Origin: an archaeon
GTDB taxonomy: Archaea > Hydrothermarchaeota > Hydrothermarchaeia > JALTZZ01 > JALUTC01
DNA length: 5,971 nucleotides
Assembly (NCBI GenBank): GCA_027051265.1
Contig: JALTZH010000032.1
Location: forward strand, 1 to 5,971
Reading direction: 5' to 3'
Position 1 is the first letter of the stretch. Each line of letters begins with the position of its first letter. The notes under the pieces are model-generated. The model worked only from the letters and a program-made list of their open reading frames with translations, was not told the origin of the DNA and did no database searches. The translations under genes and the position numbers were made by a program. Shown one piece after another: positions 52 through 5,971 of the stretch.

Positions 52-421
52 AAGAACTATTGGAAGTTGCAAATGACGATTTAAAAGTTGCTAAAGATAA
101 TTACAACTTAAGAAATTTTAGAATTTGCGTGTTTTTATGCAACAATCTGTGGAAAAATTTCTAAAAGCATATTTACTAGAAAAGGAAGAAGGATTTCCTT
201 TTATTCATTCTATAAAAATGTTAATTCATTTGTGCACCCAAATAGATAAAGATTTTGAATATTTACTTAAGATTGATGCAGATAAATTAGATAAATATTA
301 TACCGGAACAAGATATTTACCTTTATTAAAAGTTTCTCAAAAAGAAGCAAAAGAAGCTATCGAAATAGCTGAAAAAGTTAAGGATTTTGTTCTTAAAAAA
401 TTAAAAATTAAAGAATTATAA
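36..421 (+). pseudogene. Broken HEPN-domain protein, partner of the left-edge MNT gene
   Basis: Two frames joined give a HEPN protein of about 128 residues. From 42 the frame reads EDLKELLEVANDDLKVAKD and continues to FLC. From 140 the next frame reads QQSVEKFLKAYL, then a His (HSIKML), then TRY, and ends AEKVKDFVLKKLKIKEL. Two lesions are visible. The start ATG at 36-38 is followed at once by TGA, and one base is missing near 138-140 (TGC CAA CAA has become TGCAACAA). The remaining open frame could only start at TTG 125, inside helix 1-2, giving 98 residues. The C-terminus is nearly the same as that of the HEPN protein at 732-1118, so they are close paralogs. In this family HEPN is the RNase toxin and the MNT enzyme neutralises it. 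This copy is very probably dead unless the sequence contains errors. It overlaps the next MNT start by one base. Confidence 0.8.
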
Positions 422-735
422 TGGAAAAAACATTAAAACTTATCAAAGAAACCATCTTGGATATTGCCAAAAAATATAATATTGAAATAGAAAAGATTAT
501 TTTATTCGGTTCAAGAGCAAGAGAAGATTACAAAGAAGATAGTGACTATGATATACTAATAATAACAAAAGAGAAACTAGATTGGAGGATTAGAAAAAAA
601 TTTTGGATAGAAATTATAAGAAAACTACCATATACAATTGATTTAATTATAACTGACAAGGAAACATTTGAAAAGAATTCTAAATATGTTGGAAATGTTG
701 CTTATGAAGCTAAGATTGAAGGAATTATAATATGA
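421..735 (+). CDS. MNT-type minimal nucleotidyltransferase, antitoxin of an MNT/HEPN pair
   Basis: This 104-residue protein is a minimal Pol-beta-superfamily nucleotidyltransferase. The signature G30-S31, ten residues, then D42-Y-D44 is complete, and the third metal-binding Asp is D74 in TIDLII. The length is normal for the family. In characterised MNT/HEPN systems such an enzyme adds AMP to the HEPN RNase and silences it, acting in the cytoplasm. Its ATG shares one base with the stop of the broken HEPN gene before it, and its TGA overlaps the next ATG (ATGA at 732-735), so it is likely translated together with the HEPN protein downstream. Catalytic residues are all present, so it is probably active. 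The family is clear; the cellular target is inferred from the neighbour. Confidence 0.9.
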   Translation: MEKTLKLIKETILDIAKKYNIEIEKIILFGSRAREDYKEDSDYDILIITKEKLDWRIRKKFWIEIIRKLPYTIDLIITDKETFEKNSKYVGNVAYEAKIEGIII

Positions 736-1118
736 AACCAGAAGATTGGGTAAAGAAAGCAGAAACAGATTTGAGAGTTGCTAAAAAACTTTTAGAACTA
801 GATGAAGAACCTTGGATAATTGCTTATCACATAGAACAAGCTGTTGAAAAATATCTCAAAGCTTTTTTAGTTTATAAAAATCAAAGATTTAAGAAAACCC
901 ATAACATAAAAGAGCTTTTAGATTTGTGTATTAAATTGGATAAGGATTTTGAAGAACTAAGAAAATTAAATATAGAATATTTGTCAGAATATGCAACAAA
1001 CGTAAGGTATCCCGGTTTTTATGAGCCTACAAAAGAAGAAGTAATAGAAGCTCTAGATATTGCTGAGAAAGTTAAGGATTTTGTATTAAAAAAGCTTAAA
1101 TTAGAAGAAGAGAAATAA
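732..1118 (+). CDS. HEPN-domain protein, putative RNase toxin of an MNT/HEPN pair
   Basis: This all-helical 128-residue protein is a HEPN-domain protein (PF05168 type). It begins KPEDWVKKAETDLRVAKKLL, followed by the typical second helix with E35-Q36-A-V-E-K-Y-L-K, then T56-H57 and the R92-Y93-P94 element. R92 is the likely catalytic or RNA-contacting Arg of the family, but the exact R-x4-6-H spacing is not obvious, so catalysis is inferred. The family acts as a translation-blocking RNase toxin or as a substrate-binding subunit paired with an MNT enzyme. The ATG overlaps the stop of the MNT gene by four bases, so production of the two is coupled. No lesion is seen. Downstream it meets an oppositely oriented relic of a similar pair. 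Confidence 0.9.
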   Translation: MKPEDWVKKAETDLRVAKKLLELDEEPWIIAYHIEQAVEKYLKAFLVYKNQRFKKTHNIKELLDLCIKLDKDFEELRKLNIEYLSEYATNVRYPGFYEPTKEEVIEALDIAEKVKDFVLKKLKLEEEK

Positions 1119-1277
1119 ATAAAAAAGCTGATAATTCTTTAACCTTTTCTGCTATTTTTTAACGGCTTGTTGAGAAGAATAGCATGCGTAATCATAGTAA
1201 TTTTCTTCATATAATTTTTTAACTATTTCCAAATCTTTATTAGCTTTCTCTATCCATTTTTTGGTACTTTTCCTTAT
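1096..1277 (-). pseudogene. Relic of a third HEPN gene, start lost and centre deleted
   Basis: On the minus strand the frame from 1277 reads RKSTKKWIEKANKDLEIVKK and continues to SSQQAVKK, a clear HEPN N-terminus. It then stops at TAG. In the next frame the sequence resumes as IAEKVKELSAFL, matching the extreme C-terminus of the intact HEPN at 732-1118 (IAEKVKDFVLKKLK), and runs to TAA at 1098-1096 inside that gene's end. About 70 codons are missing between these parts, including the conserved His and the RYP element. The expected start codon at 1277-1275 is ATA, not ATG; an ATGA overlap with the MNT relic, as in the intact pair, would be restored by one base change. It cannot make a working HEPN protein. 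Confidence 0.75.
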
Positions 1278-1537
1278 ATTACTATACCTTCCTCTAAAGC
1301 ATAATTTATATATAAATCCATAATCTTCCTTAAATTTTTCTAAAGTTTCTTTTGAAACAATTATTATATCTGTTGGCACGTTTACCTTTTTGTAAATTTC
1401 ATACCAAAATTTCTTCTTCATTCTCCAATCTAACTTTTCTTCGTTACAATTAGTATATCCCAGTCAGAGTCTTCTCTGTAATTTCTTCTTATACGTTTTA
1501 AGATAGTTCCTTTAATTAGTTTTAATATTTCTTGCAT
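1274..1537 (-). pseudogene. Relic of a third MNT nucleotidyltransferase, active-site loop deleted
   Basis: The minus strand from ATG 1537 reads MQEILKLIKGTIL and then jumps to RRNYREDSDWDILIVT. Compared with the intact copy (421-735), about 17 residues are gone in frame, including the Gly-Ser of the GS-x10-DxD motif. One base is then missing after IVT; the next frame continues KLDWRMKKKFWYEIYKK, then PTDIIIVSKETLEKFKEDYG. A one-base insertion (AAATTAT) shifts the frame again before the true ending, YALEEGIVI and TAA at 1276-1274. The open stretch 1421-1152 is therefore an accidental chimera of the MNT C-terminus and the HEPN N-terminus. It lies head-to-head in an inverted arrangement with the intact pair and is certainly not a functional enzyme. 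Confidence 0.75.
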
Positions 1538-1576
1538 AAAATTATAATTAAAGTACTAAAAGATAAGATTTATCTC

Positions 1577-1741
1577 TCAAGAAAACTCTACGATCTCTTC
1601 TAATTTTACATTAACGAATGATATGTATTCCTCTCTCGTTGCACTATCCGGTAGCTTTAGCTCCACATATCTTTCCACGACATCTTTTATTTCCTTTTCA
1701 TCCACCTAATCAGGAACTTCTATTCGAATTACCTTTCCCAT
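1577..1741 (-). pseudogene. Orphan VapB-type antitoxin with a nonsense codon at position 12
   Basis: The minus strand from ATG 1741 reads MGKVIRIEVPD, then TAG (1708-1706), then VDEKEIKDVVERYVELKLPD and on to VNVKLEEIVEFS with TGA at 1579-1577. The N-terminus is identical to that of the intact antitoxin at 3325-3086, where codon 12 is Trp (TGG), so one G-to-A change explains the stop. The rest is open: 42 codons beginning with GTG. VapB proteins bind DNA through this N-terminal strand and the toxin through the C-terminal helix. No PIN toxin follows; the MNT relic comes next. The gene is most likely dead, although a GTG restart directly after the stop would give a short protein without the DNA-binding strand. 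Confidence 0.7.
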
Positions 1742-1763
1742 AATTTTTCTTGGTTTAATAACG

Positions 1764-1770
1764 TTTTAAA
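1764..1770 (-). promoter_or_regulatory. TATA box with overlapping palindrome, promoter of the 1741 antitoxin relic
   Basis: TTTAAAA on the minus strand is centred 26 bases before the ATG at 1741, the archaeal TATA-to-start spacing, so the mRNA would be leaderless. It lies inside an imperfect palindrome at 1760-1774 (AACGTTTTAAAGGTT on the plus strand). The same arrangement stands before the antitoxins at 2712 and 3325. Confidence 0.6.
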
Positions 1771-1800
1771 GGTTCCAAACGAAATAAAAATTTCTTTAAT

Positions 1801-3089: not shown

Positions 3090-3325
3090 TTTATTCTTTT
3101 TTCTTTTTCTCTCATCTTTTTGTGATTTTCCAATTCCTTATCAAGATCGAAATCAACATTCTTAGTTTCCGGAAATTTCAGCGTAAAATATAGGTTATAT
3201 ATTCTGATATCAACATAATCTCTTCCTATTACTTCTCGTAGTTTTTCTATCAGCATTTCTTTCAGTTTATTCGCAAGTTCCTCATCCACCCAGTCTGGGA
3301 CTTCTATTCGAATTACCTTTCCCAT
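3086..3325 (-). CDS. vapB: VapB-type antitoxin, IRIEVPDW family
   Basis: The 79-residue product begins MGKVIRIEVPDWVDEELANK, a short beta strand followed by a helix, typical of archaeal VapB antitoxins that bind their own operator. The C-terminal third (FDLDKELENHKKMREKEKR) is very charged and probably binds the toxin. The stop TGA at 3088-3086 overlaps the ATG of the PIN toxin gene by four bases. A TATA box inside a perfect 14-base palindrome lies directly upstream, fitting autoregulation. It is the only undamaged member of three copies with this N-terminus in the window; the others are at 1741-1577 and 2712-2531. Its toxin is frameshifted, so it may now be an antitoxin without an active target, or may still act on related toxins elsewhere. 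Confidence 0.8.
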   Translation of the reverse strand: MGKVIRIEVPDWVDEELANKLKEMLIEKLREVIGRDYVDIRIYNLYFTLKFPETKNVDFDLDKELENHKKMREKEKRIK

Positions 3326-3342
3326 AATTTTTTTGGTTTTCT

Positions 3343-3356
3343 AACGTTTAAACGTT
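3343..3356 (-). promoter_or_regulatory. Perfect 14-base palindrome over the TATA box, probable VapB operator
   Basis: AACGTTTAAACGTT at 3343-3356 is a perfect palindrome. Its central TTTAAA is placed about 25 bases before the ATG at 3325, as expected for a TATA box. A VapB or VapBC complex bound here would cover the promoter. The two antitoxin relics carry weaker versions of the same element. Confidence 0.6.
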
Positions 3357-3622
3357 TCTAAGTTATTTGGTTTTAGAGTTTGCTCTTTGATTTAAACATT
3401 TTTAAAATTTTGTTTTTTATCTTATTCTGTTACAAGTTTGAAAAACAGGAAGAAGATTAAAAATGGTTAGATTTAATTCTATCGTTAAAGCTTCCTTCTA
3501 TATTCTTTCGTATCACTTTTAAAACGTATTGCAAAAATTCTCTCTACATTTATAACGTTATTGAGGAACAAAAAGATAAGAATCTTGCAAATATTGAAAT
3601 TAGAATCGTTTAAGAATATAAA
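3357..3622. other. Intergenic stretch without a recognisable gene
   Basis: This AT-rich stretch separates the vapBC array from the membrane-protein operon, both on the minus strand. I see no supported gene or RNA. The longest suggestive piece is on the minus strand around 3555-3465, reading REFLQYVLKVIRKNIEGSFN and ending SNHF, but it follows a TAG and has no convincing start, so it may be a gene remnant or chance. T-rich tracts on the minus strand after 3623 could serve as an archaeal terminator for the operon. Confidence 0.4.
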
Positions 3623-4667: not shown

Positions 4668-5288
4668 ATGGAAATGTTCTCACAATTTTTATTCGGACTA
4701 TTATCTGTAATGAATCCATGCGGTTTACTTATAGCAATCTCATATCTTATGCTTCTTTTAAATGTTCAAACGTTTTATAAATCGTTGATAAACATCGTAC
4801 TCATAATTTTACTCGTACTGATTACTTACGTTCCTTTTGGAACATTGGCAGGAATTCTAGGAGAGTTTTTCATATCAAAAGTTGCTTATATCGTTTATAT
4901 CTATCCTTTAATAATAATAATTTTAGGACTAAGTTTAATAAGAGGAAAATTTTTCAGGATAAGCATAAATATAGGAACAAAATCGTTATACCTTATGATA
5001 CCGATAATTTCTCTATCAATAGCTTTTAGTTGCTCGTTACCTCTATTCCTTTCGAGTTTCATATTTGCAACTGTTCAGGAAAATTTCTTCAAAGCTTTTA
5101 TTTCCATCATATATTATGCTCTAGGATTTTCAATAACTCTAATTTCATTAACACTTATAGCAAAAATATTTGGACAACGTATTTTATACAAAATAGATCT
5201 TAGAAAAATACAAAAAATTTCTGGTATATTTCTAGTAATTATTGGAACAATAATATATCTGGAATATCTGACCTCCTCCCTGCCCTAA
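4668..5288 (+). CDS. ccdA: CcdA-family membrane electron carrier, 3' end replaced by transposon sequence
   Basis: The product of 206 residues has about six membrane helices. C18 in SVMNPCGLLIA is the CcdA NPC motif of helix 1, and C122 in AFSCSLPLFL is its partner in helix 4. CcdA (PF02683) accepts electrons from cytosolic thioredoxin and passes them to periplasm-side thiol proteins, for example in cytochrome c maturation. The thioredoxin and TatA genes lie divergently across a 49-base spacer. The start could be M1 (4668) or M3 (4674); promoter spacing favours M3. The final residues, about LTSSLP, and the stop TAA (5286-5288) lie in the GC-rich transposon end, so the original C-terminus was cut off. 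Helix 6 (IFLVIIGTIIYLEYL) is complete, so function may survive. The gene converges with tnpB and the two stop codons overlap. Confidence 0.8.
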   Translation: MEMFSQFLFGLLSVMNPCGLLIAISYLMLLLNVQTFYKSLINIVLIILLVLITYVPFGTLAGILGEFFISKVAYIVYIYPLIIIILGLSLIRGKFFRISINIGTKSLYLMIPIISLSIAFSCSLPLFLSSFIFATVQENFFKAFISIIYYALGFSITLISLTLIAKIFGQRILYKIDLRKIQKISGIFLVIIGTIIYLEYLTSSLP

Positions 5289-5400
5289 AGGGCAAGGGTT
5301 CCAGCGAGGGCGGGGAGTAAGCTTAAGGGAGCGGTCTTACTCCCGTTACGGCTATCCGCCATATTTGCGGACTTGCCGTTATGGAGGATATTAAAAGCTC
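5270..5400 (-). ncRNA. Putative TnpB guide RNA scaffold (omega/reRNA)
   Basis: The 3' end of tnpB and the element end hold three hairpins in about 100 bases: ACGGC/GCCGT enclosing TCCGC/GCGGA (5348-5379), a perfect nine-pair stem GGGAGTAAG/CTTACTCCC (5313-5321 with 5336-5344), and TGCCC/GGGCA with a TAAA loop on the plus strand (5281-5294). Base composition is much richer in GC than the surroundings. Known TnpB guide RNAs start within the 3' end of tnpB, run through the element end on the same strand and continue into flanking DNA as the guide. Here the guide would read leftward from about 5270 into the ccdA-like gene. The exact ends are not visible. Confidence 0.55.
5281..5294. repeat. Subterminal hairpin of the IS605-type right end
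   Basis: TGCCC-TAAA-GGGCA forms a five-pair stem with a four-base loop. It contains both the TAA of the ccdA-like gene (5286-5288) and the TAG of tnpB (complement of 5285-5287). Subterminal hairpins at this position are recognised by the TnpA transposase in the family. Confidence 0.65.
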
Positions 5401-5971
5401 CTACTAGATCTGCATTCATGGCTTTTCTATACTTCGGACAAACAAATAAACCTCTGTATTTTCTACCATTGTTATGGATTTCTCCGCAAAGAGGACAAAT
5501 CTTCGATGTATTCTTCTCTTCAACTGGGATATATTTCATACCGTATTCCTCGCAAAGGTCTTTAATCCATTGGTGTATTTTTCTATAGCTCCAGAGGTTA
5601 GAGATTACGAAGTTAACTCTTGAACTTTTATTTGGTTCTTTTGCAATGTGTTTAGAATATCCAACTCTAACTTTTGAAACTCCTAAGAAGTACAATTTCT
5701 CAAATAAATCTCTAAGTTTTGATCTAATATAAGCTTCGAACCTACTTCTCCATACAACGTAATACTTTCTAACTCTATCCAAATCTCCTTCAGACTGTGC
5801 TTTGGCAATCCTTTTCCTCCAGTAGAATGCTTCTGCCTTTAATGGTTTTCCGTTGATTAGGAAAGTGGTTCCATCTTCAACGAACACTGCGAAGAAATTA
5901 TTGACGCCTAAATCGATACCTACTTGTTTATTTCCGTGAGGTGTTAATGGAACTTTTCTCCACTCGTTTCT
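5285..5971 (-). CDS. tnpB: TnpB RNA-guided nuclease of an IS605-type element, C-terminal 228 codons
   Basis: The minus-strand frame is open to the window edge, so the start lies outside; the GTG at 5887 is internal. Visible parts in order are RuvC-I GIDLGVNNFF with its Asp (visible residue 20), a helical middle, RuvC-II around PVEEKNTSKICPLCG with the Glu at about residue 152, a zinc ribbon, and RuvC-III NADLVGAFNI with Asp 188. All three catalytic acids are therefore present. The zinc ribbon has CPLC but the second pair reads CPKY, so the fourth ligand is missing; this may be normal in some archaeal TnpBs. TnpB cuts DNA guided by an RNA made from the element's own end and helps the element persist. 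The tail after NILHNG is coded by DNA that also forms the RNA scaffold. Confidence 0.88.
   Translation of the reverse strand, partial: RNEWRKVPLTPHGNKQVGIDLGVNNFFAVFVEDGTTFLINGKPLKAEAFYWRKRIAKAQSEGDLDRVRKYYVVWRSRFEAYIRSKLRDLFEKLYFLGVSKVRVGYSKHIAKEPNKSSRVNFVISNLWSYRKIHQWIKDLCEEYGMKYIPVEEKNTSKICPLCGEIHNNGRKYRGLFVCPKYRKAMNADLVGAFNILHNGKSANMADSRNGSKTAPLSLLPALAGTLAL

What the first reader, a model, noticed from the sequence alone, without database searches (positions are those of the whole stretch)
5245..5294. A transposon end supplies the C-terminus and stop codon of the ccdA-like gene
The ccdA frame runs out of AT-rich DNA at about 5270 into the GC-rich element end, adding roughly LTSSLP and stopping inside the element's hairpin. 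The tnpB stop overlaps it on the other strand. The last helix is intact, so insertion was probably tolerated. The original ccdA tail should lie beyond the element's far end.
Basis: partly seen in the sequence, partly recalled or inferred. Interest (0 to 1): 0.6.

Follow-up and report, generated by a model that had tools for sequence, protein, structure and literature searches.

The report
Transposon end supplies ccdA's stop codon
A TnpB-carrying jumping gene landed in the last codons of a small membrane-protein gene and now provides that protein's last six amino acids and its stop codon, swapping out an inferred two-residue original tail; it is a tidy, probably harmless example of an ordinary insertion.

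Summary
Confirmed and sharpened. The GC-rich DNA from window 5268 on is the right end of a 1420-bp IS200/IS605-type TnpB element. Its terminal GGTCAG is shared by copies at unrelated sites in the same genome. The ccdA-like frame enters the element exactly at 5268, takes L-T-S-S-L-P from it, and stops at TAA 5286-5288, in the 4-nt loop of the right-end hairpin, overlapping the tnpB stop (5285-5287, - strand) by 2 nt. A neighbouring contig sharing exactly 127 nt, the overlap size also seen at another contig join, gives the other half. There the element begins after the target TGAC, next to a convergent aminotransferase gene. Joining the flanks by this rule gives ...YLEY-VI*: the missing tail is two residues and a stop. 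The same rule applied to a copy inside a DNA-methylase gene restores an 844-codon frame that aligns in one piece to intact methylases. None of 29 CcdA homologs ends in LTSS; their tails are 0-28 residues long. No real empty ccdA site was found, so 'VI*' is inferred. The right end closes every reading-in frame and also ends a ksgA gene, so this is a generic property, not special to ccdA. Low to moderate interest.

The parts
4668..5288 (+). ccdA-like membrane protein gene (206 aa as it stands); 4668-5267 is host DNA
   Evidence: ORF; weak Pfam DsbD_2 E=0.008 below cut-off; profile of 4 homologs hits solved CcdA 5vkv E=1e-26 and 2n4x E=3e-7; conserved C18 and C122
5268..5285 (+). element-derived codons LTSSLP at the end of the ccdA-like frame
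   Evidence: element end at 5268 from comparison of copies; translation
5286..5288 (+). element-derived TAA stop of the ccdA-like gene, in the hairpin loop
   Evidence: sequence, hairpin fold
5285..5287 (-). TAG stop of tnpB, overlapping the ccdA stop by 2 nt
   Evidence: ORF list
5278..5297 (-). right-end hairpin of the element (8-bp stem, UUUA loop)
   Evidence: fold of the right ends of four copies, same hairpin in each, with changed pairs
5268..5971 (-). right part of a 1420-bp IS200/IS605-type tnpB element; the element goes on past the window end to position 6687 of the joined contigs (C32 + reverse of C42)
   Evidence: 127-nt identical overlap of contigs, same 1420-bp length as the copy in C21
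5285..5971 (-). 3' part of tnpB (442-codon open frame in the joined contigs); RuvC motifs visible, fourth zinc-finger Cys absent
   Evidence: Pfam OrfB_IS605 4.8e-17 and Cas12f1-like_TNB 1.2e-15; NCBIfam guided_TnpB 6e-21, below its cut-off on this fragment; frame
5248..5267 (-). predicted guide of the TnpB guide RNA: about 16-20 nt of flank next to the right end, i.e. antisense to the last ccdA codons
   Evidence: inference from the position rule for TnpB RNAs (PMC8612924); no RNA data

Best explanation
An IS200/IS605-type (tnpB-only, IS1341-like) element inserted next to a TGAC target on the strand opposite to ccdA, two codons before the original ccdA stop, without target duplication. Its right end faces into ccdA, so the ribosome reads six element codons (CTG ACC TCC TCC CTG CCC) and stops at the TAA in the right-end hairpin loop. 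The predicted ancestral end is ...YLEY-VI-stop. The exchange of 2 for 6 residues after the last membrane helix is most likely neutral. The right end carries a stop in all three frames read from outside (after 1, 6 and 13-17 residues), so insertions of this kind truncate cleanly rather than run on. Shown: boundary, frame, stops, homolog comparison. Inferred: the tail VI, neutrality, and that the TnpB guide RNA carries ccdA antisense sequence and would cut an empty ccdA copy.
For: Right ends at unrelated sites share the DNA that encodes LTSSLP up to position 5268. Left ends are TGAC|AAAAGATAAGGCAAGCC or nearly so in four copies and TGAC|AAA... in C138. The rule 'TGAC + flank after GGTCAG' applied to the C21 copy restores an 844-codon N6 DNA methylase frame that aligns across the junction and in one piece over 94-98% of its length to the five listed plasmid relatives. 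The same rule here gives ccdA ...YLEYVI*. The contig join is an exact 127-nt overlap, the same overlap size as between C21 and C85. Among 29 homologs 12 end 0-7 residues after the helix and none has LTSS. Stops in all three frames in 4 of 4 full copies. The end of ksgA in C194 is likewise made by the element's TGA and lies where the same-genus homolog ends.
Against: No empty ccdA site was found in the own assembly, in the GTDB species contigs, or in the one same-genus genome, which lacks ccdA beside the aminotransferase gene. 17 of the 29 homologs have tails of 13-28 residues, so if the contig join were wrong a longer tail could have been lost. Neutrality and expression are untested.
Confidence: 0.9

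Rival explanations
1. The contigs are wrongly joined: the left flank next to the aminotransferase gene belongs to another copy, so the true original ccdA tail is different and perhaps longer.
For: The contig broke inside the element; several related copies exist; strain variants occur in the assembly (C78 overlaps the C42 end at 98%); 17 of 29 homologs have 13-28-residue tails.
Against: Only C32 and C42 share the 127-nt end exactly, other copies being at most 89% identical; the joined element has exactly the length of the C21 copy (1420) and an intact 442-codon tnpB; the joined empty site gives a stop after two codons.
Confidence: 0.07
2. The element-derived tail is selected: it changes stability, folding or membrane insertion of the CcdA-like protein, or the shared 3' end couples ccdA expression to the TnpB guide RNA (the ccdA transcript would be antisense to it).
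For: The frame is kept and the two genes overlap tail to tail; convergent transcription over the guide region is unavoidable if both are expressed (inference).
Against: The tail is just what the right end encodes in this frame (LTSSPP in three other copies); homolog tails vary freely; no expression data.
Confidence: 0.05
3. LTSSLP is the native ccdA end and the element lies downstream or captured it.
For: None found.
Against: The same DNA is the right end of copies at unrelated loci; no homolog has LTSS at its end.
Confidence: 0.01

Closest known systems
IS200/IS605 family, tnpB-only (IS1341-type) insertion sequences of archaea
   Same: TnpB with OrfB_IS605 and TNB domains, subterminal hairpins, no target duplication, fixed target (TGAC) left of the left end, tnpB stop near the right-end hairpin
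   Different: No Y1 transposase gene in the element and none detected in the 95% complete genome, so mobility must have come from an absent or undetected TnpA; the fourth zinc-finger Cys is missing in the copies
Insertion sequences that end a host gene with their own stop codon
   Same: Element end gives the C-terminal residues and stop of the interrupted gene (general knowledge; my paper searches gave no specific precedent)
   Different: Only two inferred residues are lost, so the gene is probably functional rather than a pseudogene
CcdA / DsbD transmembrane family
   Same: Two conserved cysteines, several hydrophobic stretches, profile match to solved CcdA, thioredoxin gene next door
   Different: Very divergent: single-sequence Pfam hit below cut-off, no NCBIfam or phmmer hit

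Membership tests
IS200/IS605 (tnpB-only, IS1341-type) | TnpB protein of the OrfB_IS605 / TNB type | tested here: met
   Pfam 4.8e-17 and 1.2e-15, both over cut-off
IS200/IS605 (tnpB-only, IS1341-type) | No target duplication; insertion 3' of a fixed short target | tested here: met
   TGAC left of the left end in 6 left ends; the C21 frame is restored without duplication
IS200/IS605 (tnpB-only, IS1341-type) | Subterminal hairpins at both ends | tested here: met
   Right-end hairpin folded in four copies; left-end GCCTCGCCTTTTAAGGCGGGG palindrome seen in the sequence
IS200/IS605 (tnpB-only, IS1341-type) | Y1 transposase available in the genome for movement in trans | tested here: not met
   No PF01797 match in the own genome (95% complete) or same-genus genome; one in the same-order genome. 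tnpB-only elements lack tnpA by definition, so this bears on current mobility, not on the family assignment
RNA-guided TnpB nuclease | RuvC catalytic residues and guide RNA from the right end plus flank | tested here: inconclusive
   GIDLG, E and NAD motifs present in the 442-codon frame; zinc-finger Cys 4 missing; no Rfam hit in the window; no RNA data
CcdA/DsbD_2 | Sequence similarity with two conserved membrane cysteines | tested here: met
   C18 and C122 invariant in four sequences; profile to 5vkv E=1e-26; the window protein alone is below the Pfam cut-off and has no phmmer hit
CcdA/DsbD_2 | Thiol-disulfide electron transport across the membrane | not testable with these tools
   needs biochemistry

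The most novel reading that the evidence does not exclude
Right ends of this element group are built as universal gene terminators (a stop in all three frames right behind the cleavage site), which lets them settle at gene 3' ends, making a guide RNA antisense to the host gene's last codons so that element-free copies of an important gene are cut.
Probability: 0.1. Interest if true: 0.55.

Novelty: new member of a known kind. Interest (0 to 1): 0.3.

Why it matters
It gives a clean example of how a TnpB element can settle inside a coding sequence almost without cost: the right end itself supplies the stop in any frame. It also shows that coding tails next to TnpB elements should be read as transposon DNA when genes are annotated or C-termini compared. 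If the guide logic holds, the guide RNA of such an element targets the very end of a host gene.

Tried and rejected
Empty-site searches in the own genome and GTDB contigs found nothing, and a close-relative scan for ccdA in GTDB contigs found nothing. The same-genus genome has a different gene beside the aminotransferase, so it is no empty site. The same-order genome has related right ends, but none of the 9 sites read clearly ends a gene with homolog support. A test for excess of insertions at gene 3' ends: four reading-in genes of 12 is more than uniform chance (P about 5e-4) but only P about 0.02 once insertions inside genes are assumed purged, and P about 0.3 counting only the two well-supported cases; I do not claim target preference. 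A single-sequence structure model was too poor to use (pLDDT 58). The relative-genome scan for the right-end motif was mostly noise in other genomes. Paper searches for IS-supplied stops gave no specific precedent.

Full report
What is there. The window is a whole contig (C32, 5971 bp) of a 1.46-Mb, AT-rich prokaryotic genome in 257 contigs; I take it to be archaeal from its gene content, but no taxonomy was looked up. The ccdA-like frame runs from 4668 to 5288 on the + strand and ends ...GTIIYLEY-LTSSLP. The TnpB frame comes from the other strand and stops at 5285-5287, overlapping the ccdA stop (5286-5288) by two bases. GC content jumps from 27% in ccdA to 56% in 5268-5400.

Where the element ends. 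BLAST in the own genome finds three further full-length copies (C21, C79, C138), a partial one (C84), and shorter remains (C57, C116, C50, C52, C85). In the copies that keep the right end the shared sequence stops at GGAGGTCAG, with GATCAG in C57 and a slightly shorter GGAG run in C116, and the flanks are unrelated. A pattern scan adds more distant right ends on C173, C12, C194 (GGTCAC) and C153. The last element base is therefore window 5268, exactly the first base of the ccdA codon CTG. All six residues LTSSLP and the stop are element DNA. Left ends read TGAC|AAAAGATAAGGCAAGCC (C32/C42, C21, C79), nearly the same in C116, and TGAC|AAA... in C138, the pattern of IS200/IS605 elements, which insert 3' of a short fixed target without duplicating it (as described for ISDra2 in PMC8612924).

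The far end. The window ends inside tnpB. Contig C42, reversed, overlaps it by exactly 127 identical bases. 127 looks like the assembler's overlap size, since the end of C21 overlaps the end of C85 by exactly 127 too. The joined element is 1420 bp, the same as the C21 copy, and holds a 442-codon tnpB frame, open like that of C21; C79 and C138 are broken. Beyond the left end lies an aminotransferase gene pointing towards ccdA, with its stop 20 bases from the insertion point.

Proof of the boundary rule. In C21 the copy interrupts a gene. Removing it by the rule (keep TGAC, drop from AAAAGATAAGG to GGTCAG) restores an 844-codon frame. That protein aligns through the junction with a relative in the same class and in one piece over 94-98% of its length with the five best plasmid-borne N-6 DNA methylases listed. 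Applying the same rule in the window gives, in the ccdA frame, GAA TAT | GTC ATA TAA: ccdA would end ...YLEY-VI-stop.

Homologs. A profile search of 297 genomes found 116 with CcdA relatives. In 29 aligned homologs the last helix ends at the same place; 12 stop 0-7 residues after it and 17 carry 13-28 residues. None carries LTSS near its end. The last hydrophobic stretch of the window protein (from residue 180 to 199) lies upstream of the junction, which follows residue 200, and the paired cysteines C18 and C122 are kept. A profile of four homologs matches solved CcdA chains (5vkv, E = 1e-26), although the window protein alone matches Pfam DsbD_2 only weakly and no solved chain. The insertion was thus probably tolerated.

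A general property of the end. Read from outside, the right end gives a stop in every frame: TGA at once (from CTGACC), TAA after six residues (from the hairpin loop) or TAA after 13-17 residues, in all four full copies. In the same genome a ksgA-type gene on C194 ends at such a right-end TGA (...YRSFK-K-stop) where its same-genus homolog also ends. A glycosyltransferase-like frame on C57 and a small VapB-like frame on C116 also read into right ends. Four of 12 is above uniform chance, but mostly explicable by loss of insertions inside genes. The same-order genome shows no clear case among its nine sites.

What it may do. By the known layout of TnpB guide RNAs (3' end of tnpB, right end, then about 16 nt of flank; PMC8612924), this copy's guide would be ATATTCCAGATATATT..., antisense to the last ccdA codons, and TGAC next to it in an empty site would be the TAM. 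TnpB could then cut element-free ccdA copies and favour restoring the element. This is inference; no RNA data exist here, no Rfam family matched, and the copies lack the fourth zinc-finger cysteine. No Y1 transposase was found in the genome, so the element may no longer move.

Limits. No actual empty ccdA site was found; the same-genus genome lacks ccdA at this place. The tail VI depends on the contig join and the validated rule. Verdict: the finding is right and now precise; the event is an ordinary insertion with an unusually clean outcome.

Noticed in passing
window 1686-1774, 2657-2745, 3270-3358: Three related copies of a small-gene start region (reading MGKVIRIEVPDWVDEE... in the intact one, - strand) next to PIN-like genes: repeated, partly decayed VapB-type antitoxin starts (ORFs).
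   Followed up: no
window 60-1540: An array of HEPN/nucleotidyltransferase-like small gene pairs, one intact set on + (421-1118) and decayed copies on either side, some inverted (repeats D2, D3, I1-I3).
   Followed up: no
joined contigs, tnpB 5285-6613 (-); L012, L013: The TnpB zinc finger has CPLCG...VCPKY / VCPVM / VCSKF: the fourth Cys is missing in C32, C21 and C138, in two of them with an otherwise open 442-codon tnpB frame.
   Followed up: partly
L016 (contig C116) around 1577-1866: A deleted copy of the element (both ends, no tnpB) lies between a VapB-like antitoxin frame, which it ends, and a PIN-like start.
   Followed up: partly
L012 (contig C21) 3323-4747: A second copy with an open 442-codon tnpB frame interrupts an N6 DNA methylase / restriction-modification gene.
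   Followed up: yes
L136 (contig C78) 1-464 vs start of contig C42: A 98% identical overlapping contig end: strain variation in the assembly, a likely reason for the broken contigs.
   Followed up: partly
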